From an uncultured Pelagibacteraceae bacterium (lineage in GTDB: Bacteria; Pseudomonadota; Alphaproteobacteria; Pelagibacterales; Pelagibacteraceae): DNA of 64,000 nucleotides. The notes under the pieces are model-generated. The model did no database searches. It had not been told where the DNA came from and worked only from the letters and a program-made list of their open reading frames with translations. Shown here piece by piece: positions 43,663 to 52,867 of this stretch (position 1 is its first letter; each line of letters starts with the position of its first letter). The translations under genes were made by a program, and so were the position numbers. The stretch lies in assembly GCA_902604245.1 (NCBI GenBank), contig CACKXQ010000006.1, positions 1 through 64,000 of the forward strand, in the 5' to 3' direction.

Positions 43663-43809
43663 TTTTTATATTTGAACTATTTATGGTTAAAGTTATCCAC
43701 AAGTATACTAAATATAGTTTTGATGTTCACGTTTTGATTCACTTTTGATTCAGTTTCAGACTCAAAATACAACCTGATTGACACTATTGAATAACTTGGA
43801 TATTAATTA

Positions 43810-43828: not shown

Positions 43829-44224
43829 ATGAAGCTAACTATACCTTACTATTTACATAAAGCTGGTGCGGGTTTTCCATCCCCTGCTACAGACTATATT
43901 GAGGAAGACATCGATTTAAATGTTCATTTAATCAAGAATGTTCCAGCAACTTTCATCATAAGAGTTCAAGGAAAATCAATGGTGGATGTTGGAATTAATG
44001 ATGGTGATCTATTAGTTGTTGATAAAAGTTTAACACCAAAAAACTTCTCAACAGTTATTGCAAATGTTCATGATGAACTAGTTGTTAAAAGTTTAGTTCA
44101 AGAAAGAGATAAAAAATTTTTAACATCAGGCTCTAAAGAATTTACAGATCGAATTTTAATTAACGAAGATGAAGATATATTTATTTGGGGAGTTGTAACT
44201 TATGTCATCCATTCAGTATACTAA
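43829..44224 (+). CDS. umuD: UmuD-like error-prone polymerase accessory protease
   Basis: A 131-residue S24-family protein aligning with UmuD. The self-cleavage site is A14-G15 in [14 protein letters not shown], the catalytic serine S50 in [14 protein letters not shown] and the lysine K87 in ELVVKSL; each lies ten positions earlier than in E. coli UmuD, so the N-terminal arm is shorter. RecA-stimulated cleavage would give UmuD'. The SOS box in front and umuC overlapping by 23 bases confirm a standard umuDC operon. Confidence 0.93.
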
Positions 44225-45482
44225 AAAAATAGCACTTATTGATTGTAATTCTTTTTATGTTTCTTGTGAAAGATTATTCAATCCTAAAATAAGAAAAAAA
44301 CCTGTTGTAGTTTTATCTAATAATGATGGTTGTATAATTTCAAGATCAACTGAAGCTAAAGCTTTAGGTATTAAAATGGGAGAACCTTACTTCAAGGCAA
44401 AAGATATTATCATTAAAAACAAAGTTGAAGTTTTTTCATCTAATTATTCTTTATATGGAGATTTATCTAGAAGAGTGATGAGAACACTAAAAAGATTTAA
44501 TTCTGCTATTGAAGTTTATTCTATTGATGAAGCATTTTTAGATTTATCAAACTTTCCAGACAATGAAGTTGAAAAAGTTGGAAAAGAGATCAGAGAGACA
44601 GTTTTAAAGTGGACAGGTATTCCAACTAGTATTGGGATTGCTAAAACAAAAACCTTAAGTAAAGTTGCAAATCATATTGCAAAGAAAAAAAAATCAGGTG
44701 TAACAAGTCTGATAGGAATTGAAAATATTGATCCCATATTAGAGAAAGTAGAAATTAATGATGTATGGGGTGTTGGAAGACAATTAACAAAGTTTTATCA
44801 TAAAAATGGAATTTATAACGCCAAGCAACTCAAAAATAAATCTAATACATGGATAAAGAAAAACTCTAATGTTTTAGGGTCAAGAACTGCAATGGAGTTA
44901 AGAGGAGTTCCTTGTATTGATATTGAGACAACTCAATCAAAAAGAAAAAGCTGCGTTGTATCTCGTTCTTTTGGTCAAAGAATTGAGAAATACCAAGAAT
45001 TAAAAGAAGCAGTTGCAAACTATTGTTTAAATGCATCTGAAAAAATAAGATCTGAGTCTTTAATCGCAAAATCAATTACTGTTTTTGTTAGAACAAGTCC
45101 TTTTCAAAGTAGATTTGGTTACTATTCAAATTCAAAAACGATAGATTTTGCAATTTCTACAAACAACAGCATTGAAATAGTTAAAACTGCCTTAGTTGCT
45201 TTAGACTCTATCTTTAAAAATGGCTACCGTTACCAAAAAGCAGGGGTAATGCTTACTGGTTTATCAAATGAAGATGGCAGCAAGAACCTATTTTCTTGTG
45301 AAAAAGATGAGAAAATAAAGGGTTTAATGAAGTCTATTGATAATACTAATTATAGATACGGAAGATCTACTTTAAGTCTTGCTAGCGCTGGTGTCCAAAA
45401 GAGATGGAACATGAGAAGAGAGCATTCTTCTAAAATAGATACTGCAGATTTTTACTTACTGCCAACGATTAGAGCTAATTAA
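44202..45482 (+). CDS. umuC: DNA polymerase V catalytic subunit UmuC
   Basis: A 426-residue Y-family polymerase. [18 protein letters not shown] with the first metal aspartate, [45 protein letters not shown] with the other acidic pair, [23 protein letters not shown] and [13 protein letters not shown] are all present, along with the UmuC-type C-terminus. Copies damaged templates with low fidelity as UmuD'2C. Start chosen at the ATG overlapping umuD. Converges on the polysaccharide-lyase-like gene with a 2-base gap. Confidence 0.95.
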
Positions 45483-45484
45483 TT

Positions 45485-46468
45485 TTAGTTGTATGTAAAT
45501 TCTCCAGTTACAATATCTTCAATTTCTATTGGCAACATTCCTCCATTCTGATTTATCAAATCATCACATTTGTAACCAAGGTCATTTAATTTTAAATCTT
45601 CACATGATCTAGCTTTACGAATCTCATCAGCATAAATTGATTGCGAATAATTTTCTATAAATTGAGCATAAAGACCAAAATTAAAATTAGCATGATTAAA
45701 CTCCATTTCTTCTACTGGCTTATCCTTCCAAAGAGTTTGTCCTTTTTCATCTATGATTAAATCACCATCTAACCAAACTTTGAAAAAACCGATATTTGGA
45801 TCGCTATCAAAGTTAATATTAAATAATAAATCATACCATACATTATTCTTTAACTGTGATATTGGTATGAGAGAGTAAGTATTTAATTCCCTAGCACAAT
45901 AATTAGCATCTTCATCAACTTGTCTTTCGTCTATAGTGCCATCACAATTGACTAATCCTTTCAAAGGTTCAACTCTTAATTTTAAACCATATTTAGAACT
46001 AATGCCTAAAAGAAACAAAGGAGGAAATTCTGAAACACCACTATGAAATTGCAAAATATGGGGATCATATTTTTGCCATTGAGACTCTTCAGGAGCATTA
46101 AAACTATATGTTACCCAAACCTCACCCAATATTCCACCAGCATCTGTTTGCTTAGCTTCTACTCTTTTATGAGTACTCGAATTACGTTCGCAGTCTTCTT
46201 TTCTTTGAAAGCATTCGTCTCCTGGTGCCTGAATAAAAAATGCTGTGCCTCCTAAACGAGTAGGATTATTGATAACAGAAAAAAGTTTTATCTTATTTTT
46301 TTTCTCATATTTTTTTAATTGTTTTTTTCCAGTCACTCTCCATGCTTTCCAACCTTGAAGAGTGGTATCATTTTTTTTTATATTTAGATTTTTTTTATAT
46401 AAATCTTTAGCATTAGAAGGTACTACAAAACTAATCATTAATAAAATCAATAAAAATATTTTTTTCAT
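45485..46468 (-). CDS. Secreted polysaccharide-lyase-like protein
   Basis: A 327-residue protein with a signal peptide (MKKIFLLILLMISFVVPSNA). The domain RLGGTAFFIQAPGD, EVWVTYSFNAPEESQWQKYDPHILQFHSG, FFKVWLDGDLIIDEKG and NFNFGLYAQFIENYSQSIYADEIRKA follows the beta jelly-roll pattern of polysaccharide lyase families such as the PL20/heparinase-like group. Six or more cysteines suggest disulfides. It would cut or bind an acidic polysaccharide outside the cell. Last gene of the packed glycan operon, 9 bases after the glycosidase. Confidence 0.6.
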   Translation of the reverse strand: MKKIFLLILLMISFVVPSNAKDLYKKNLNIKKNDTTLQGWKAWRVTGKKQLKKYEKKNKIKLFSVINNPTRLGGTAFFIQAPGDECFQRKEDCERNSSTHKRVEAKQTDAGGILGEVWVTYSFNAPEESQWQKYDPHILQFHSGVSEFPPLFLLGISSKYGLKLRVEPLKGLVNCDGTIDERQVDEDANYCARELNTYSLIPISQLKNNVWYDLLFNINFDSDPNIGFFKVWLDGDLIIDEKGQTLWKDKPVEEMEFNHANFNFGLYAQFIENYSQSIYADEIRKARSCEDLKLNDLGYKCDDLINQNGGMLPIEIEDIVTGEFTYN

Positions 46469-46477
46469 TTGTATATT

Positions 46478-47491
46478 TTAGTTAAACTTAAATTTTTTAA
46501 TTGAACCATCTTTATAGATAAATTCTACTTCTTCATTTGAAAGAGATTTTATTGATGTAAAACCATCGTACTCAGAAATAAATTCGTTTAATTTTTTTCT
46601 ACTTTTCTTTGACATTTTTTTACCAGGAGCATTTACACCAACATCAATTATTAATTCAGCTCCATTTAGAAAAGCATTTACATAAGCTTTTATCGGAGGA
46701 CCACAAGTCATAGCCTCTGTCAACCAAATTGGTTTATCAATATCAACACTTTTTAATAAATCAGCAAATTCATCTACCCATAGCTCTTTATCGCACTGCC
46801 CATCTGGACCGCTTATATGGTGAATGTTTGCAATATCAAAGTGATCCTTAATTTTTGGCAAAGCTGATTTCCAATACTTTTTATTTTCTGGAAACATTCC
46901 TGCAGCTCCAGCCATAACGATAATTGCATCTGGTTGTTGTTCTTTAATTACTTTTGAAGAAAAATTAAAAATTTCAACAAAATCTTCCTCGCTTCCTTTG
47001 AAAAACATATCAAACTCTGGTTCATTCATCACATCCCAATATATAATTGGTTTTGTTAATCCAGGCATATCATTTGAACCATCTCCGTCATAACGGTCCA
47101 CTAATTTTATAAGAAAAGTCTTATAATCTTCCATTGAACAAGGTTTGCTTAAATATTTTGTGAAACGTTTTCCAAATGGACTTCTGGCTTTTTTTCTTTT
47201 ACAAGATTTTTGATCCCAATTTGTATGAGGCCAGATGGTTGCTAAAATTGTTTGGTTGTGATCTTGTGCATAAACAACGTATTTATCTACATCTTCCCAA
47301 AAAAATTTACCCTTTTCACTTTCTATGTGATTCCAAACAAAAGGTCCTGGATGAGGTCTAACCCATTGTCCGTCTTTACCACGCATTTTTTTGTCTCTCA
47401 TTTCAGTTAATTCACCAAATCTAGATTGTGAATTTGCAAAATTAGTTAAAAATAAAAGTGATAATAAAATCGTTAATATTTTTTTCATCAA
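46478..47491 (-). CDS. Secreted clan GH-A glycosidase-like protein
   Basis: A 337-residue (beta/alpha)8-barrel protein with a signal peptide ending near FANS/QS (residue 21). YWDVMNEPEF contains the probable acid/base E157, and PIWLTEAM the probable nucleophile E259, as in clan GH-A families such as GH5, GH39 and GH10-like enzymes. NHIESEKGKFFWEDVDKYV is a common early segment. Substrate unknown. Its start overlaps the DUF1501 gene's stop by 4 bases, so it is translationally coupled to that gene. Confidence 0.7.
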   Translation of the reverse strand: MMKKILTILLSLLFLTNFANSQSRFGELTEMRDKKMRGKDGQWVRPHPGPFVWNHIESEKGKFFWEDVDKYVVYAQDHNQTILATIWPHTNWDQKSCKRKKARSPFGKRFTKYLSKPCSMEDYKTFLIKLVDRYDGDGSNDMPGLTKPIIYWDVMNEPEFDMFFKGSEEDFVEIFNFSSKVIKEQQPDAIIVMAGAAGMFPENKKYWKSALPKIKDHFDIANIHHISGPDGQCDKELWVDEFADLLKSVDIDKPIWLTEAMTCGPPIKAYVNAFLNGAELIIDVGVNAPGKKMSKKSRKKLNEFISEYDGFTSIKSLSNEEVEFIYKDGSIKKFKFN

Positions 47492-48645
47492 ACTTTAAAT
47501 AATTTCTCAGATAAGTTTTGAAGCTTATCTCCCCAAAAAACTTCTTTCTGAATTCTTTTAAATTCAATGTCAAAAACGCTGGACATTGCTGAAGCATATA
47601 CAGATCTAGCATCAATTGTTGAATTTAAGTCTCTTCCTTCAAATAACTCTTTTTTCTTCAGTCCTGGCCAATCAGTATAAACTTGCGATTTTTTTAATAA
47701 ACCACCTGCCATAAATATTGCTGAACCATAACCATGTTCAGTACCTCTTCCACCATTTTGTTCAATTGTTCTGCCAAATTCGGTAAGAGTTAAGACTAAA
47801 GTATTTTCGATTTCTGATCCTAGACCTTTTTCTAAACTTTTAAAAATTGAGTCCATTTCAATTAAGCTATCTGAGTGAGAACCATTTACTCCACCTTGTG
47901 CAGCATGTGTATCGAAACCATCAACTTCAAACACAGCAACTCTTGGACCATTTATTTTTTTTAATTCTAGACCTGCCTTTAATGCTAAAGATGAATTTTT
48001 TCTAGACATAGAGGTGCCTCCATTATTCATCGTAGATCTGTTAGCAATTATTTCCATCATATTAGCTAGATCATGCTCAGATTTATTTGCATAAATTGAT
48101 TTTAGAAGTTGTAAAAGTTCTGTTCTTGGAAGTCTTTTTTTTGAAGGATAAAAATTATCATTACTAGGAATTCCTCTAAGAATTAAAGGCATTGGTAATG
48201 CCAATGCAAGACCATCCCCTTTTAACTCAGCTAATTTCATTCCTCTTCCTAACCAACCAGTTTTTATTGAATAAGGGATATGTCCTCCTGTTTCCATGAG
48301 GTTTTGACCATCAAAATGTGATCTTTTAGTGTATGGAATATTTGTTGCATGAACAATTGCTCCAAGATTATTTTGCCACAAATTATGAAAGTTTTTTAGT
48401 TTAGGATGTAGGGCAAAATCAGAATTTAACTTTATTGTTTTGTCTAAAATCAAATCTTTTCGTCTCTTTTCAAAATTCTTATCTCCAATTATTGGAACAG
48501 CACATAAACCATCCATTCCACCTCTTAACATTATAACTACAAGATTTTTTTTCTTGCTAGTGTTTGCTAAAACAGGAAAATTAAAGCCAGCTAAAAATAA
48601 TGTAGTAGCTGAACCTTTTAAAAAATTTCTTCTTGATATCTTCAT
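47488..48645 (-). CDS. DUF1501 Tat-exported protein
   Basis: A 385-residue protein with a twin-arginine signal (SRRNFLKG, arginines 5 and 6, hydrophobic stretch to about residue 27). The core has LVVIMLRGGMDGLCAVPI, FALHPKLKNFHNLW, SHFDGQNLMETG, VFEVDGFDTHAAQGG and LTLTEFGRTIEQNGGRGTEHGYGSAIFMAGG, the alkaline-phosphatase-like metal-binding pattern of DUF1501. Members are exported folded and are nearly always paired with DUF1800, as here. Activity not known. It overlaps DUF1800 by 4 bases and the glycosidase by 4 bases. Confidence 0.88.
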   Translation of the reverse strand: MKISRRNFLKGSATTLFLAGFNFPVLANTSKKKNLVVIMLRGGMDGLCAVPIIGDKNFEKRRKDLILDKTIKLNSDFALHPKLKNFHNLWQNNLGAIVHATNIPYTKRSHFDGQNLMETGGHIPYSIKTGWLGRGMKLAELKGDGLALALPMPLILRGIPSNDNFYPSKKRLPRTELLQLLKSIYANKSEHDLANMMEIIANRSTMNNGGTSMSRKNSSLALKAGLELKKINGPRVAVFEVDGFDTHAAQGGVNGSHSDSLIEMDSIFKSLEKGLGSEIENTLVLTLTEFGRTIEQNGGRGTEHGYGSAIFMAGGLLKKSQVYTDWPGLKKKELFEGRDLNSTIDARSVYASAMSSVFDIEFKRIQKEVFWGDKLQNLSEKLFKV

Positions 48646-50069
48646 GATCTTAATGTCTCCGGTAAATTAAACAATATTACGTGTTTATGAACAAGCTCTC
48701 TATGTTGACCTATAATTTTTAAAATTTCACCTGGATTATCATAATTTTTTTCAATCATTTCCTCATAAAATTCCTTTGTTTGTGAATTACCTGATTTTTT
48801 ATAATAAGCCTCTCTTGCATAAACTAGTCGTCTTATTAATAATTCTGGTGACATCCAATCCTCTGAAATATCTGACCATCCGTTTGGTTGTTTTGCTAAA
48901 TAAGGATGTTGACCAAGCTCATCCATCAAGTATTCTAATGCTCTTTGATCTCTGATGGGTTTATTTCCAATTTTATAAAGATCCATAAATGCAGGAGATG
49001 GAATTAAATCAACATCAGCCATTTTGCTCATTTGTAACAACCAGTTTTCAGGATTCTGAAATTTATTGTATTGATCAGAATAATTGAAAGCAACTTCAAT
49101 TGCAGCCTTATGAACCTCTGGCAAAAAACCATCTGATTTTTCCCAAGCTTTTATAATTGGTTCCATCATTTCTTTTGTAGGATTATCAGTAATTAAATAT
49201 CTACAAAGTTTCATGGCTATAAATTCTCTACATGATGGGTGATTAACTAAATCTGTAATTGCATTTGATAAACCTTTTCTTCCACTTTTATATTTTTTAC
49301 CTAAAACTATTTTTGAGCCAGGTTGATGGGCATTAGGATCAAAATGGACATCTCCAGTTTCTAATCTTTTTTTTCCCCATTCGGGTCTCCAACCTGACAT
49401 AATATACGCCATTTGAATTACATCCTCTTGAGAGTAACCACAATTTGGTGAAACAGTATGTAGCTCTAAAAGTTCCCTTGCATGATTTTCATTTACACCT
49501 CTTTTTTTTCCTTTTTCTCTGGCCCATTTTGCACTTTGACTTTTTGGACCAATATTTTGTTCATTATCCAAATGGTGAATCATGGACCAGCCTTTGGTTG
49601 CCTCTTGAGCCATTTTTTCAAAGTTTTGGTTCATATTAGCTCTAATAATTTCTCGCTGATATGCTCCTGTTGTATATTGTGCTAAAAAATCTTTTTCACT
49701 AATTGCGAAATGATTTCCCCAAAAGTACCAGAGTTTAGCTAAAACTGGATTTCGACTTTTTAAAGCCTCTGAATATCTTATACAAAGTTCTAGGTTCCAC
49801 CAAAATTTTTGTCCAGTTGCATGCCTTAACTTATTTTTTTCTCTTTTGTAGCCATCTTTATCGTTTTTAAATTTTTTTCTTAAAACTTTTCTATCTCCAT
49901 AAACCCACTCTCTATAGTAACCTCTAAGTTCTTTCTCTGGTAAGATTTTTCCCTTCCAAGAAAATTCAGGAACATTATTCAATTGATTGTTTGCCCACTC
50001 TAGTGGATCGGATGGCACCTTTTCATCAGGTCCAAGTCCAAATGCAACCTTACGATAAAAATTTTTCAT
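48642..50069 (-). CDS. DUF1800 protein
   Basis: A 475-residue protein with FGLGPDEKVPSDPLEWANNQL near the start, FWGNHFAIS, NENHARELLELHTV and YSQEDVIQMAYIMSGWRP, the conserved core of DUF1800, and a helical C-terminal part. No export signal is obvious, unlike its partner DUF1501. The DUF1800/DUF1501 pair is widespread in bacteria that work on polysaccharides, but its chemistry is undefined. First of four genes with 4- to 9-base spacing or overlap; the GT2 gene is 18 bases upstream. Confidence 0.88.
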   Translation of the reverse strand: MKNFYRKVAFGLGPDEKVPSDPLEWANNQLNNVPEFSWKGKILPEKELRGYYREWVYGDRKVLRKKFKNDKDGYKREKNKLRHATGQKFWWNLELCIRYSEALKSRNPVLAKLWYFWGNHFAISEKDFLAQYTTGAYQREIIRANMNQNFEKMAQEATKGWSMIHHLDNEQNIGPKSQSAKWAREKGKKRGVNENHARELLELHTVSPNCGYSQEDVIQMAYIMSGWRPEWGKKRLETGDVHFDPNAHQPGSKIVLGKKYKSGRKGLSNAITDLVNHPSCREFIAMKLCRYLITDNPTKEMMEPIIKAWEKSDGFLPEVHKAAIEVAFNYSDQYNKFQNPENWLLQMSKMADVDLIPSPAFMDLYKIGNKPIRDQRALEYLMDELGQHPYLAKQPNGWSDISEDWMSPELLIRRLVYAREAYYKKSGNSQTKEFYEEMIEKNYDNPGEILKIIGQHRELVHKHVILFNLPETLRS

Positions 50070-50087
50070 AAATTATTTTAAAATAAA

Positions 50088-50957
50088 TTATTTTAATGTG
50101 TCAATATCTGAAATGTTTGTTAAAGAATTATTAAACTCAGTCATATTTTCTCTTCCTGAGATTTTTAATATTATTAATCCAAAAATAATGATTACAGCTA
50201 GTGGTATTGCTGTAATTACACTTATATATTCAGAAATTATTATTAAATAGATCGCATAAAATGAGATAGATCTAAAAATTACACCTGTTTTAAAGACTGC
50301 AATAATCGATAAAGAATGCTTTATTAAGTTGAAGAAACTCATCTTCGAGGGACCAAAATATCTTGAGCCTCTTATTGAAGGAGATTTAGATAAGTTATTT
50401 TCTGTCTTGGATAGGGAACCAGAAAAACTACTCCAAGTTGCTTTCTCTTCGATTAATTTTTTAACAGTTTGTTTTGTAAGACAAGTGTAATTTCCAAATT
50501 TTATAAATTTTCCTGTAAAGGTAAAAGTAATAATTTTATGGAAAAAATAACAGATTTTAAAAATAATACTTTCTGATCTTTTCACTCTTTCTCCAACAAT
50601 GGTATTATTTGGATTATCTTTAATCTTTTCAACAAAGTTTCTTATTTCCTCAGGTCTATCCTCTCCATCTCCATCCATAGGAATTACATAATTAAATTCC
50701 TCATTTTCTGAGATATATTTAAGTCCTGCAGCAATACATCTTGCATGTCCTCTATTATTTCTCATATTTATTAATTTTAAAGATTTAATATTATTTATAT
50801 TTTTAGTTTCTAAAATTTTTTCTTCAGTTGAGGCATCATCGACTACAATAACTGAGAATGAAGCTTTAAGGTCGGAGACATTAGTATTAATTTCTTCAAT
50901 TAATTTTGATACAGATTTAAAATCATTGAAGACTGGAATTAATATTATAATATTCAT
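50088..50957 (-). CDS. GT2 family glycosyltransferase with C-terminal membrane helices
   Basis: A 289-residue polyprenol-phosphate-sugar-synthase-like protein. FSVIVVDDASTEEK and the metal-binding PMDGDGEDRPEEI (with DxD) are in the catalytic domain, NMRNNRGHARCIAAGLKY is typical of the GT2/DPM group, and two membrane helices end the protein (FRSISFYAIYLIIISEYISVITAIPLAVIIIFGL). It probably loads a sugar onto a lipid carrier for the GT39 enzyme encoded upstream. It follows the 41-residue protein with a TAATG overlap. Confidence 0.82.
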   Translation of the reverse strand: MNIIILIPVFNDFKSVSKLIEEINTNVSDLKASFSVIVVDDASTEEKILETKNINNIKSLKLINMRNNRGHARCIAAGLKYISENEEFNYVIPMDGDGEDRPEEIRNFVEKIKDNPNNTIVGERVKRSESIIFKICYFFHKIITFTFTGKFIKFGNYTCLTKQTVKKLIEEKATWSSFSGSLSKTENNLSKSPSIRGSRYFGPSKMSFFNLIKHSLSIIAVFKTGVIFRSISFYAIYLIIISEYISVITAIPLAVIIIFGLIILKISGRENMTEFNNSLTNISDIDTLK

Positions 50958-51082
50958 TAACTTACTGAGCCTATCAGTCTAAATAGAGAAGCAAAAAAAC
51001 CATATCCTGAGAGTTCAATTAAAACAACAATTCCAATAATGAATAAAAGTCTCTTGTTTTTTTGGTTTAATTGAAATTTCAT
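50957..51082 (-). CDS. Small single-helix membrane protein, 41 residues
   Basis: Starts with ATG at 51082 and stops at TAA 50957-50959. The sequence MKFQLNQKNKRLLFIIGIVV is followed by a second part of the helix and a short end (GFFASLFRLIGSVS). Its ATG overlaps the stop of the GT39 gene (ATGA) and its stop overlaps the ATG of the GT2 gene (TAATG), so it forms an exact link in a chain of coupled genes. Both overlaps together make it very likely to be real. Such short proteins accompany lipid-carrier-sugar flippases or GT39/GT2 enzymes in other clusters. Function unknown. Confidence 0.7.
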   Translation of the reverse strand: MKFQLNQKNKRLLFIIGIVVLIELSGYGFFASLFRLIGSVS

Positions 51083-52371
51083 TTATAAGTTAAGCATTTC
51101 ATATCTTTGTTGCATAATTGGGCTTCAGTTGAACTATAAATCCATTTTGGTCTTTCTGGAAGATGGTAAGATATATTTCCTGCAATCCATTCATTTCCTT
51201 TAATATATTCCATTTTTCCAAGATCCTTACCTTTGGTTTCATAAAAAACTTTAGCCTGCTGAGCTAACTTTTTACCATCAAAATCAGTTCTTTTATCAGT
51301 TTGTGAGATTGAAACATAAGAATACAAAATTGGAGATAATAAGAATAATATCAAAAAGATTGAAGAAAACGCTCTAATTTTTTCAAAATTAATTTGCGAT
51401 TTTAAAATATAAACAAATAACAAGCCAAAGCTTATATAAAATGGTGTCATCCACATAGTTCTTATTTTTACACCCATAGTAAAAGAAGTTAGAAAAATAA
51501 ATAAAATAGGAATTAAATTAATTGATATTAAAAACAACAACTTATCATCATCTAAATTAATATTTATTTTAAATTTTTTAATTAATACAAAAACCATTAA
51601 TAAAAATGGTAATAATAATCCAATTTGCTTACCTAAAAATATCATAGGATGCTTTATATGATTAAAAATACTTGCTTCTTCTGATCCAGTTCTGAGAAGT
51701 CCATAAGTAATGGTTACATACTCATTCTCAGTTAACCAAATAATGTGTGGTAACAAAATTATAATAAAAGGAACAAAAGAAACTAGGCACTTTAAATTTA
51801 GTCTTTTTGTATAAATCATGTAAATTAAAAGTACATCTATTGCTAAACCTAAATAGATAAACAAATATTTAGATAGAAACCCAAGTCCAGCAAATAGACC
51901 AAGTAATAACCAATCTAATATTTTATTATGCTTAATACCTTTCCATAAATAAAAGACTGAAAGAGACCAAAAAGGTATTAAGCAGACATTTACATTAAAT
52001 TCGGGTGTAGTGAAGTTGTAGAAATATATTCCCTCTAATAACAAAACAGACAATAAAGAAAATATTTTATTATCAAAAAAATCCTCAGCTAACTTAAAAA
52101 CAACAATAAAAGAAACTATAATACAAATTTGACTTAGTAGATAATAAGCCCAGTCTTGGGGTCCAAAGATTTGGTAAAATGTTTCTGGTAAAAATGCACT
52201 CATTGGAGGATGTTTATTAAATCCCCAGTCTAAGTTACTACCCCAAGCTAAAGCTTCGATAGTATCTAGTGGTAAATTGTGATTTGTTAAACTTGGAACC
52301 AATGTCCAGATTAATAAATGTGTTGTAACAAAAATATAAAATAAACTATTAATATTTTTATAAATGGCCAT
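51079..52371 (-). CDS. GT39/ArnT-like membrane glycosyltransferase
   Basis: About 430 residues with ten or more membrane helices. The loop after the first helix has LDTIEALAWGSNLDWGFNKHPPMSAFLPE, in which the acidic residue and the HPP motif are typical for enzymes that move a sugar from polyprenyl phosphate to a lipid or protein. The C-terminus has a small soluble part with two cysteines (QLCNKDMKCLTYK). I use the ATG at 52371 rather than an upstream TTG at 52389. First gene of the glycan operon. Confidence 0.82.
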   Translation of the reverse strand: MAIYKNINSLFYIFVTTHLLIWTLVPSLTNHNLPLDTIEALAWGSNLDWGFNKHPPMSAFLPETFYQIFGPQDWAYYLLSQICIIVSFIVVFKLAEDFFDNKIFSLLSVLLLEGIYFYNFTTPEFNVNVCLIPFWSLSVFYLWKGIKHNKILDWLLLGLFAGLGFLSKYLFIYLGLAIDVLLIYMIYTKRLNLKCLVSFVPFIIILLPHIIWLTENEYVTITYGLLRTGSEEASIFNHIKHPMIFLGKQIGLLLPFLLMVFVLIKKFKININLDDDKLLFLISINLIPILFIFLTSFTMGVKIRTMWMTPFYISFGLLFVYILKSQINFEKIRAFSSIFLILFLLSPILYSYVSISQTDKRTDFDGKKLAQQAKVFYETKGKDLGKMEYIKGNEWIAGNISYHLPERPKWIYSSTEAQLCNKDMKCLTYK

Positions 52372-52450
52372 TTTTATTAATTTATACAATTAATGCATTC
52401 TTGACACTGATTAAATGATGAATATATTCTCGAAATTCATAAATTTGAGT

Positions 52451-52867
52451 ATGGTAAAAATCTCTAAAAAATATATCCCAAAAGAAACAGAAAAGTATAT
52501 GTGTGCTAAGCATCTTGCTTTTTTTAAACAAAAACTTACGGAATGGAAAAAAGATCTAAAAAGAACAAACAATGAAGCAATATTTAATGCTTCAATGGAT
52601 GATAATAGCGCCTCAGCAGACATAGTTGATCAAGCAAGCTCATATACAGAAAAAAACGTTGAGATGAGAGCAATCAATAGACAAATTAAATTGATTTCCA
52701 AAATTGATGGAGCTTTAAAAAAAATTCAAGATGGAACTTATGGTTTTTGTGAGGAAACAGCTGAACCTATCGGTCTTAAAAGATTAATGGCAAGACCAGT
52801 TGCAACATTATGCATAGCAGCTCAGGAAAAGCACGAAAAAGAAGAAAAAGTTTACGCTGATATTTAA
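52451..52867 (+). CDS. dksA: DksA-family RNA polymerase-binding protein
   Basis: About 138 residues with a coiled-coil (helices around SADIVDQAS, whose two aspartates would reach into the RNA polymerase channel) and a C-terminal zinc-finger-like part. Here only two of four usual cysteines remain (FCEETAEPIGLKRLMARPVATLCIAAQ), as in the alphaproteobacterial variant where other residues replace the second cysteine of each pair. I place the start at ATG 52451, giving the KISKKYIPKE start usual for alphaproteobacterial DksA; ATG codons at 52415 and 52418 would add up to 12 hydrophobic residues. It tunes rRNA and stress promoters with ppGpp. Converges on GST with 4-base overlap. Confidence 0.9.
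   Translation: MVKISKKYIPKETEKYMCAKHLAFFKQKLTEWKKDLKRTNNEAIFNASMDDNSASADIVDQASSYTEKNVEMRAINRQIKLISKIDGALKKIQDGTYGFCEETAEPIGLKRLMARPVATLCIAAQEKHEKEEKVYADI

What the first reader, a model, noticed from the sequence alone, without database searches (positions are those of the whole stretch)
45485..52371. Seven-gene glycan cluster combining GT39/GT2 with DUF1800/DUF1501 and two polysaccharide-acting enzymes
All seven genes lie on the minus strand with gaps or overlaps of 18 bases or less: GT39, small membrane protein, GT2, DUF1800, DUF1501, glycosidase, lyase-like protein. DUF1800 and DUF1501 are known as partners of unknown chemistry in polysaccharide-using bacteria, and here the same transcript also codes for enzymes that both build (GT2/GT39) and cut (glycosidase, lyase) sugars. 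It looks like a single unit for making, trimming or recycling a surface glycan, which would be unusual for a lean genome.
Basis: partly seen in the sequence, partly recalled or inferred. Interest (0 to 1): 0.72.

Follow-up and report, generated by a model that had tools for sequence, protein, structure and literature searches.

The report
Swappable gene modules in SAR11 bacteria
Seven adjacent genes in a SAR11 ocean bacterium, first read as one sugar-polymer unit, are three separately inherited modules stacked at one chromosomal site, including a two-gene pair of unknown function that lineages swap as a set and a changing collection of secreted polysaccharide-cutting enzymes.

Summary
The seven minus-strand genes exist as described, but not as one unit. 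In 72 loci of the same genus they form three layers between dksA and umuCD. (1) GT39 and GT2 adjoin dksA in 68 of 68 loci that reach dksA, 19 of them without the DUF genes. (2) DUF1800–DUF1501 is a two-gene module (DUF1501 in 89 of 399 genus genomes) that is absent, tandemly stacked, or replaced as a pair: window against L128, 60–72% identity over the pair, 86–95% over the glycosidase and 87–94% over GT2–GT39. Pairwise identities correlate at 0.95 within the pair, 0.56–0.73 with flanking genes. (3) Beyond it lies a mosaic of secreted lyases, GH10-like enzymes and other cargo; the window's lyase crossed between lineages. DUF1501 is a Tat-signalled alkaline-phosphatase-fold protein; DUF1800 models confidently as helical, without a solved relative found. 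Best explanation, partly inferred: envelope-glycan modification by lipid-linked sugar transfer, a co-exported DUF1501/DUF1800 enzyme and interchangeable trimming enzymes. Feeding is less likely (TonB plug in 2 of 16 genomes, GH88 in none); a permissive insertion hotspot remains a serious rival.

The parts
51079..52389 (-). Module 1: GT39/PMT_2-type integral membrane glycosyltransferase (ATG start probably at 52371)
   Evidence: PF13231 E 5.9e-32; D42 and E45 conserved in at least 98% of 69; next to dksA in 68 of 68 loci that reach dksA
50957..51082 (-). Module 1: 41-aa single-membrane-segment micro-protein
   Evidence: 27 minus-strand copies (between GT39 and GT2) and 13 plus-strand copies (far side of dksA) in the 72 loci; excess of synonymous changes
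50088..50957 (-). Module 1: GT2, nearest to ArnC/DPM1-type polyprenyl-phosphate sugar synthases
   Evidence: PF00535 E 1.4e-15; PRK10714 61 bits, far below its cut-off of 529; D95xD97 conserved in at least 98% of 70
48642..50069 (-). Module 2: DUF1800, helical protein without a recognisable signal peptide
   Evidence: PF08811 E 4.7e-73; model pLDDT 95.0, pTM 0.93; no solved relative found by fold
47488..48645 (-). Module 2: DUF1501, Tat signal, alkaline-phosphatase-superfamily fold
   Evidence: PF07394 E 6.6e-23; VIA Z 17.8 over 242 residues, 3.5 A, to a nucleotide pyrophosphatase/phosphodiesterase; sulfatases by Foldseek E 2.4e-5, TM 0.41
46478..47491 (-). Module 3 (cargo): secreted GH10-like (clan GH-A-like) glycosidase
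   Evidence: Sub-threshold PF00331; E157 and E259 invariant in 23; signal-peptide-like N-terminus in the GH copies listed
45485..46468 (-). Module 3 (cargo): secreted PF14099 polysaccharide lyase; its only close relative in the set is in a divergent SAR11 lineage
   Evidence: PF14099 E 1.5e-17; L136 carries it at 94%, the other listed hits are 37% or less, while L136's dksA, GT39 and DUF1501 are 67, 57 and 66% identical
44202..45482 (+). Boundary: umuC (with umuD at 43829-44224), convergent
   Evidence: present in 61 of the 72 loci, the others not reaching it
52415..52867 (+). Boundary: dksA, divergent from GT39
   Evidence: TIGR02420 118.5 bits against cut-off 115.5; present in 68 of the 72 loci

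Best explanation
The block is a modular locus at one fixed SAR11 chromosomal site (between dksA and umuCD). SHOWN: a resident GT39-GT2 core that tracks the backbone; a DUF1800-DUF1501 pair that is present or absent, stacked in tandem, and replaced as a matched two-gene unit; and interchangeable cargo, mainly secreted lyases and glycosidases, some of it exchanged between lineages. INFERRED: GT2 loads a sugar on polyprenyl phosphate and GT39 transfers it to an envelope acceptor on the periplasmic side. DUF1501 goes out through Tat carrying the signal-less DUF1800 with it, and acts as a metal-dependent enzyme (phospho- or sulfo-ester hydrolase or transferase) on an envelope glycan. The lyase/GH cargo trims uronate-containing glycan in the periplasm or at the surface. 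Allele swapping would change surface chemistry, plausibly under phage pressure. I put about 0.9 on the modular architecture, about 0.45 on the envelope-glycan function, and about 0.2 on phage pressure as the cause.
For: Synteny of 72 loci, recount, gene content of 59 intact intervals. Window against L128, 300-bp bins: 86-95% over the glycosidase, 60-72% over the DUF pair, 80% in the bin that straddles the DUF1800 start, 87-94% over GT2-GT39; the lyase position is also 59-67% because L128 has other cargo there. Protein identities for the same two: umuC 99, dksA 99, GT39 92, GT2 90, DUF1800 57, DUF1501 70%. L124 and L131 show the same dip. Pairwise identity in 37 loci: DUF1501-DUF1800 r=0.95; the pair with GT2/GT39/dksA/umuC/GST r=0.56-0.73; those five with each other r=0.87-0.98; one pair type on two backbones (L124, L127, L128; L129, L130). 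Sites with nothing between GT2 and umuC exist (L097, L098, L105). Lyase exchange: window-L136 95% (fourfold sites 0.85) and L119 or L114-L134 95% (0.82), against dksA 65-67, GT39 57-60 and DUF1501 63-66% for the same pairs of loci. PF14099 genes cluster here: 20 of 38 matches within 20 kb of umuC in 43 genomes. Tat motif in 54 of 55 SAR11 DUF1501s, no signal-like segment in 52 of 52 SAR11 DUF1800s; TatC in 16 of 16 genomes. Fold of DUF1501.
Against: No substrate, product or transcript is known. Lyase or glycosidase presence does not depend on the DUF pair (25 of 40 against 11 of 19 loci; Fisher p=0.78); counts per locus differ weakly (mean 2.0 against 0.63; p=0.046; loci not independent). Unrelated cargo (complete urease set in 14 loci, PEP carboxylase in 5, ammonium transporter in 3; sulfatase in 7 downstream of the pair) uses the same region, so sharing an address may mean only that insertions are tolerated. 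The cross-lineage similarity of the glycosidase (median 85%, fourfold 0.56) is no higher than that of umuC (87%, 0.56), so it is not by itself evidence of exchange. 18 of 38 PF14099 matches lie elsewhere in the genome. Outside SAR11 the identified neighbours are not glycan genes. The DUF1501 model is only moderate (pLDDT 76.7), with its conserved 292-306 loop unresolved. An AP fold does not fix the chemistry.
Confidence: 0.5

Rival explanations
1. Pure insertion hotspot: the GT pair, DUF pair and cargo have unrelated jobs and share only a permissive site.
For: Urease genes, PEP carboxylase and an ammonium transporter sit in the same interval; the modules segregate independently; outside SAR11 the identified neighbours of the DUF pair are a cytidine deaminase, nucleoside phosphorylases, a desaturase, a DMSP-lyase-family gene or glutamine synthetase.
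Against: Lyases and glycosidases dominate the cargo, and PF14099 genes are concentrated here; 24 of 54 junctions put a cargo stop or start 1 or 4 bases into DUF1501, in seven different families, although such overlaps are common in compact genomes.
Confidence: 0.3
2. Polysaccharide feeding: the cargo enzymes (with a sulfatase-like DUF1501) break external uronate-rich glycans in the periplasm and the cell eats the products.
For: Cargo is rich in PF14099, PF05426 alginate-lyase-like and GH10-like secreted enzymes; a sulfatase gene (PF00884) lies downstream of the pair in 7 loci.
Against: TonB plug domain in 2 of 16 genomes (G156, G176), in neither of the two window-clade genomes tested (G127, G166); GH88 in 0 of 16. 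No oligo-uronide transporter recognised beside the lyases. GH88 is only one of several routes, and the window's own genome (76% complete) was not in those two searches.
Confidence: 0.2
3. One co-inherited seven-gene glycan unit.
For: Tight spacing on one strand; all parts glycan-compatible.
Against: Modules occur without each other at the same site, and the DUF pair is replaced between conserved flanks.
Confidence: 0.05

Closest known systems
DUF1800-DUF1501 pairs co-operonic with horizontally transferred bacterial chitin synthase (PMC5122149, passages read)
   Same: Same two domains, adjacent, transferred together, Tat motif on DUF1501, beside a glycosyltransferase gene
   Different: The SAR11 GT2 is a 289-aa PF00535 protein with no chitin-synthase match; no epimerase or aminotransferase among the seven genes; the SAR11 pair is replaced between flanks within one genus
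Replacement flexible genomic islands of aquatic bacteria (PMC4033161, title and start of abstract seen in the listing)
   Same: Same position in different strains with different genes; homologous recombination named as the means
   Different: Here the swap also works at the scale of one two-gene pair inside the island, and the cargo is mainly secreted lyases and glycosidases
SAR11 hypervariable regions HVR1-HVR4 of HTCC1062 (PMC2217521, passages read)
   Same: Variable regions of the SAR11 genome; HVR2 is envelope-related
   Different: The gene numbers listed for HVR1-4 (0042-0054, 523-568, 1162-1173, 1214 on) do not include this interval near gene 630; that paper reports two single-gene indels downstream of proteorhodopsin
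ArnC-ArnT / GtrB-Gtr type lipid-linked sugar transfer (recalled)
   Same: GT2 resembling polyprenyl-phosphate sugar synthases next to a PMT_2/GT39 transferase
   Different: No ArnC-level score (61 against a 529-bit cut-off), no flippase recognised; acceptor unknown
Polysaccharide utilisation loci (recalled)
   Same: Lyases, glycosidases and sulfatase-like proteins clustered
   Different: No SusC/D or TonB receptor among the seven genes; TonB plug in 2 of 16 genomes

Membership tests
DUF1501 (PF07394) | Match above Pfam gathering score | tested here: met
   81.9 bits against 27
DUF1800 (PF08811) | Match above Pfam gathering score | tested here: met
   247.2 bits against 26.1
Alkaline phosphatase superfamily (DUF1501) | Shared fold over most of the domain | tested here: met
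   Z 17.8, 3.5 A over 242 residues (7mw8_C); 477 of 1000 chains with Z 8 or more; sulfatases at Foldseek E 2.4e-5
Alkaline phosphatase superfamily (DUF1501) | Two-metal active site and Ser/Thr/Cys nucleophile | tested here: inconclusive
   D45, S109, H110, D245, H247, E289, H304 are each conserved in 73 or more of 75, but roles are assigned only by recalled order of motifs, and loop 292-306 has pLDDT under 50
Polysacc_lyase (PF14099) | Match above Pfam gathering score | tested here: met
   64.6 bits against 29.9
GH10 (PF00331) | Match above Pfam gathering score | tested here: not met
   15.6 bits against 22.1; so called GH10-like only
GH10 (PF00331) | Clan GH-A acid/base and nucleophile glutamates | tested here: inconclusive
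   E157 (NEP) and E259 invariant in 23; assignment from recall of clan GH-A
GT39/PMT_2 (PF13231) | Match above Pfam gathering score | tested here: met
   111.5 bits against 26.1
ArnC (PRK10714) | Score above NCBIfam equivalog cut-off | tested here: not met
   61.4 against 529 bits
Bacterial chitin-synthase operon | Chitin synthase gene beside the DUF pair | tested here: not met
   GT2 matches PF00535 and no chitin-synthase family
Polysaccharide utilisation locus | TonB/SusCD-type outer-membrane uptake | tested here: not met
   None among the seven genes; TonB plug in 2 of 16 related genomes
Replacement flexible genomic island | Same position, different content, exchange between conserved flanks | tested here: met
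Tat-exported complex with a signal-less partner | Tat signal on one protein, none on the tightly linked other | tested here: met
   Twin-Arg motif in 54 of 55 DUF1501s, no hydrophobic N-terminus in 52 of 52 SAR11 DUF1800s by a simple hydropathy rule
Tat-exported complex with a signal-less partner | Physical complex and co-export | not testable with these tools
   No complex modelling or experiment available

The most novel reading that the evidence does not exclude
DUF1800-DUF1501 is a two-subunit, Tat co-exported envelope-glycan enzyme built from an alkaline-phosphatase-fold catalyst and a helical partner of a fold not yet solved. In SAR11 its divergent alleles are exchanged as matched pairs at one site, next to interchangeable lyases, as a surface-type switch under phage pressure in one of the ocean's most abundant bacteria.
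Probability: 0.25. Interest if true: 0.8.

Novelty: new variant of a known kind. Interest (0 to 1): 0.56.

Why it matters
DUF1800 and DUF1501 appear in only 4 and 10 papers of the library searched; one of them states that DUF1501 lacks biochemical characterisation (PMC4452313, passages read). Yet DUF1800 is in 117 of 387 genomes of the class sampled. SAR11 offers a natural experiment: the pair is swapped as a unit between conserved flanks, which is strong evidence that the two proteins work together and that the operon neighbours need not match them. It also shows that a streamlined plankton bacterium keeps a fast-changing site for secreted polysaccharide-cutting enzymes, which makes the question 'what do SAR11 lyases cut, their own surface or algal glycans?' testable.

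Tried and rejected
Rejected or not supported: (a) one seven-gene unit. (b) Chitin-synthase operon: no chitin-synthase match. (c) Classical PUL. (d) Phage carriage: the viral-contig scan with a DUF1501 alignment gave only 2 distant relatives, 31 and 35%. (e) DUF1800 fold: no solved relative found (Foldseek best E 0.30, prob 0.05; VIA best Z 3.9 over 58 residues). In BFVD the only hit with E below 0.001 is itself a phage DUF1800. This does not show a new fold: domains were not tested alone and no library of cellular predicted structures was at hand. (f) PDB by sequence: no match for DUF1501, DUF1800, GH or lyase. (g) A promoter for the operon: the scan of 52250-52550 was near chance (3 found, 2.3 expected) and gave no minus-strand site in the 43-bp dksA-GT39 gap.

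Cautions on counts. The 72 loci were not random: the DUF-plus ones are the 12 other hits plus 40 chosen for score and contig length; the 20 DUF-minus ones come from the umuC hits. For one search an interval counted as intact if both umuC and GT2 were in the stretch, so it cannot itself show that GT2 is always present; that claim rests on the dksA-based count. 13 of 72 were dropped there (12 DUF-plus, 1 DUF-minus). One search used 37 loci with single full-length copies of seven genes. One search used 43 genomes with a umuC position (window genome left out, one umuC fragment used for G105); of the 83 genomes the rest, including G158 with 4 lyase matches, were not used. Its binomial p assumes independent genomes and is only indicative. 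Signal peptides were judged by a hydropathy rule of my own. In one search the 95 further DUF1800s include SAR11 single-cell genomes; 4 of 95 passed the rule (L204, L207, L215 and a doubtful L219); the twin-Arg motif was in 97 of 102 further DUF1501s. The cyto- or periplasmic place of DUF1800 is thus unproven. Neighbour genes outside SAR11 were identified by Pfam in only five loci (L198, L199, L200, L203, L207); elsewhere only BLAST against SAR11 families was used, in which L287 has a distant GT39 match on the other strand a few genes away. One record titled Pelagibacteraceae (L264) falls with the other alphaproteobacteria on the tree and was labelled 'other'.

Literature searches. I found no description of this locus there; that covers only this open library and those terms. 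Passages were read in PMC5122149, PMC6653060, PMC2217521, PMC7318151, PMC7542561, PMC12636525, PMC3597751 and PMC4452313; no paper was read whole.

Full report
WHAT IS THERE. GT39, a 41-aa membrane micro-protein, GT2, DUF1800, DUF1501, a GH10-like glycosidase and a PF14099 lyase run from 52371 (or 52389) to 45485, with overlaps of 4, 1, 4 and 4 bases and gaps of 18 and 9. They lie between dksA (divergent) and umuCD (convergent); beyond dksA come GST, a reductase, ferredoxin and a rhodopsin (PF01036 E 3.6e-53). A SAR11_0636 sRNA of Rfam lies at 43685-43774, which fits SAR11. The glycosidase is only GH10-like (below cut-off), though both expected glutamates are invariant in 23 members.

THREE MODULES, NOT ONE UNIT. 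I compared 72 loci of the same genus, 52 with the DUF pair and 20 without it. GT39 lies next to dksA, with GT2 close by, in 68 of 68 loci that reach dksA: 49 of 49 DUF-plus and 19 of 19 DUF-minus. In 59 intervals that hold both umuC and GT2, 40 have the DUF pair and 19 do not; in three of the 19 GT2 lies directly against umuC (43, 8 and -8 bp). What lies between DUF1501 (or GT2) and umuC differs widely: nothing in L021, L108, L112, L113, L122 and L138; one to five lyase or glycosidase genes in 25 of the 40 DUF-plus and one or two in 11 of the 19 DUF-minus intervals; a complete urease set in 14 of the 72 loci, PEP carboxylase in 5, an ammonium transporter fused to a SpoIIE domain in 3, and a sulfatase downstream of the pair in 7. 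The lyase-type families are PF14099 and PF05426, nearly all with signal-peptide-like N-termini. In larger draws DUF1501 is in 89 of 399 genus genomes, 15 of 57 good ones, and DUF1800 in 35 of 198 genomes of the order, all in this genus.

THE DUF PAIR IS SWAPPED AS A PAIR. Window against L128 in 300-bp bins: 86-95% over the glycosidase, 60-72% across DUF1501 and DUF1800, 80% in the bin that straddles the DUF1800 start, and 87-94% over GT2 and GT39. At protein level umuC and dksA are 99% identical, GT39 92, GT2 90, but DUF1800 57 and DUF1501 70. L124 and L131 show the same dip. Over 37 loci, pairwise identities of DUF1501 and DUF1800 correlate at r=0.95, while the pair correlates at 0.56-0.73 with GT2, GT39, dksA, umuC and GST, which correlate at 0.87-0.98 among themselves. 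One pair type occurs on two backbones (L124, L127, L128 and L129, L130). L126 and L134 hold two different types in tandem. DUF1800 and DUF1501 overlap by 4 bases in 51 of 53 adjacent pairs. All 54 SAR11 DUF1501 rows group together against 25 other rows (support 98/91), so the types diverged inside SAR11 or came from one source.

THE CARGO MOVES TOO. The window's lyase has one close relative in the set, 94-95% identical with 0.85 of fourfold sites matching, in L136, whose dksA, GT39, DUF1800 and DUF1501 are 67, 57, 62 and 66% identical to the window's. Another lyase is shared at 95% between L119 or L114 and the distant L134. For the glycosidase the cross-lineage similarity is no higher than umuC's, so it tells nothing by itself; several other close cross-type cases involve L124, L127 and L128, whose backbone is window-like. 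Of 38 PF14099 matches in 43 genomes with a umuC position, 20 lie within 20 kb of umuC and 18 elsewhere. Lyase presence does not depend on the DUF pair (Fisher p=0.78), while counts per locus are weakly higher with it (p=0.046).

OUTSIDE SAR11. DUF1800 is in 117 of 387 genomes of the class. In the 20 class loci fetched the two genes are adjacent, and relatives with about 50-77% identity to the query occur in SAR116, Rhodospirillales and other single-cell genomes and MAGs. The neighbours identified by Pfam, in five loci, are cytidine deaminase, nucleoside phosphorylases, an O-methyltransferase, HSP20, a desaturase, ketopantoate hydroxymethyltransferase, a DMSP-lyase-family gene and glutamine synthetase, with one unidentified. 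BLAST against the SAR11 families showed no adjacent GT39, GT2 or lyase in the loci printed, apart from a distant GT39 match some genes away in L287. Published work links the pair to transferred bacterial chitin synthases (PMC5122149, passages), which does support a glycan role elsewhere.

HOW IT LIKELY WORKS. DUF1501: Tat motif in 54 of 55, TatC in 16 of 16 genomes, fold of the alkaline-phosphatase superfamily, with conserved D45, S109, H110, D245, H247, E289 and H304. DUF1800: confident helical model without a solved relative found, no signal-like segment in 52 of 52 SAR11 members, but signal- or lipoprotein-like N-termini in L204, L207 and L215, which suggests that its place of work is outside the cytoplasm and that in SAR11 it rides out with DUF1501. 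Apart from the signal peptide, the longest badly modelled stretch of DUF1501 is the conserved loop 292-306, as would be expected if it is ordered by metal or partner (inference). GT2 keeps DxD and GT39 keeps D42/E45. I therefore favour an envelope-glycan role. Feeding is less likely because uptake parts are mostly missing, and a hotspot of unrelated neighbours remains a serious rival.

CULTURED CARRIERS.

Noticed in passing
window 50957-51082 (-); 13 plus-strand copies on the far side of dksA in other loci: A 35-42-aa single-membrane-segment micro-protein (motif IELSGxG or near it) with an excess of synonymous changes occurs in two positions around dksA (27 and 13 loci).
   Followed up: partly
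L018, L019, L022, L123, L129, L135, L136, L139, L141-L146: A complete urease set (ureABCDEFG; alpha subunit confirmed by Pfam, the other six named from recall) lies in the same region in 14 of 72 loci.
   Followed up: partly
L126 and L134: Two DUF1800-DUF1501 pairs of different allele types stand in tandem.
   Followed up: partly
L026:41-1487 and L143: DUF1800 is interrupted in two loci (a stop inside in L026; a 344-aa and a 115-aa piece in L143).
   Followed up: no
L099:13354-15501 (+), also L100, L101: Ammonium transporter fused to a SpoIIE phosphatase domain (716 aa) as cargo in DUF-minus loci.
   Followed up: no
G156:C11:8375-8683 and G176:C2:196549-196872: Two DUF-plus SAR11 genomes carry a TonB plug-domain receptor, which the other 14 tested lack.
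   Followed up: no
window 43685-43774 (-): SAR11_0636 sRNA of Rfam directly upstream of a GFA-family gene.
   Followed up: no
L020:15208-16206 (-) and L199:10665-11654 (-): A fatty-acid-desaturase-family gene beside the rhodopsin in several SAR11 loci has a 53-54% similar relative two genes from the DUF pair in non-SAR11 alphaproteobacteria.
   Followed up: partly
L203:7443-8069 (+): A DMSP-lyase-family gene (PF16867 E 9.6e-17) lies directly before the DUF pair in one alphaproteobacterium.
   Followed up: no
L137, L144 and others, family f31: A small plus-strand gene (about 73 aa) often sits between cargo and umuC or beside the urease genes.
   Followed up: no
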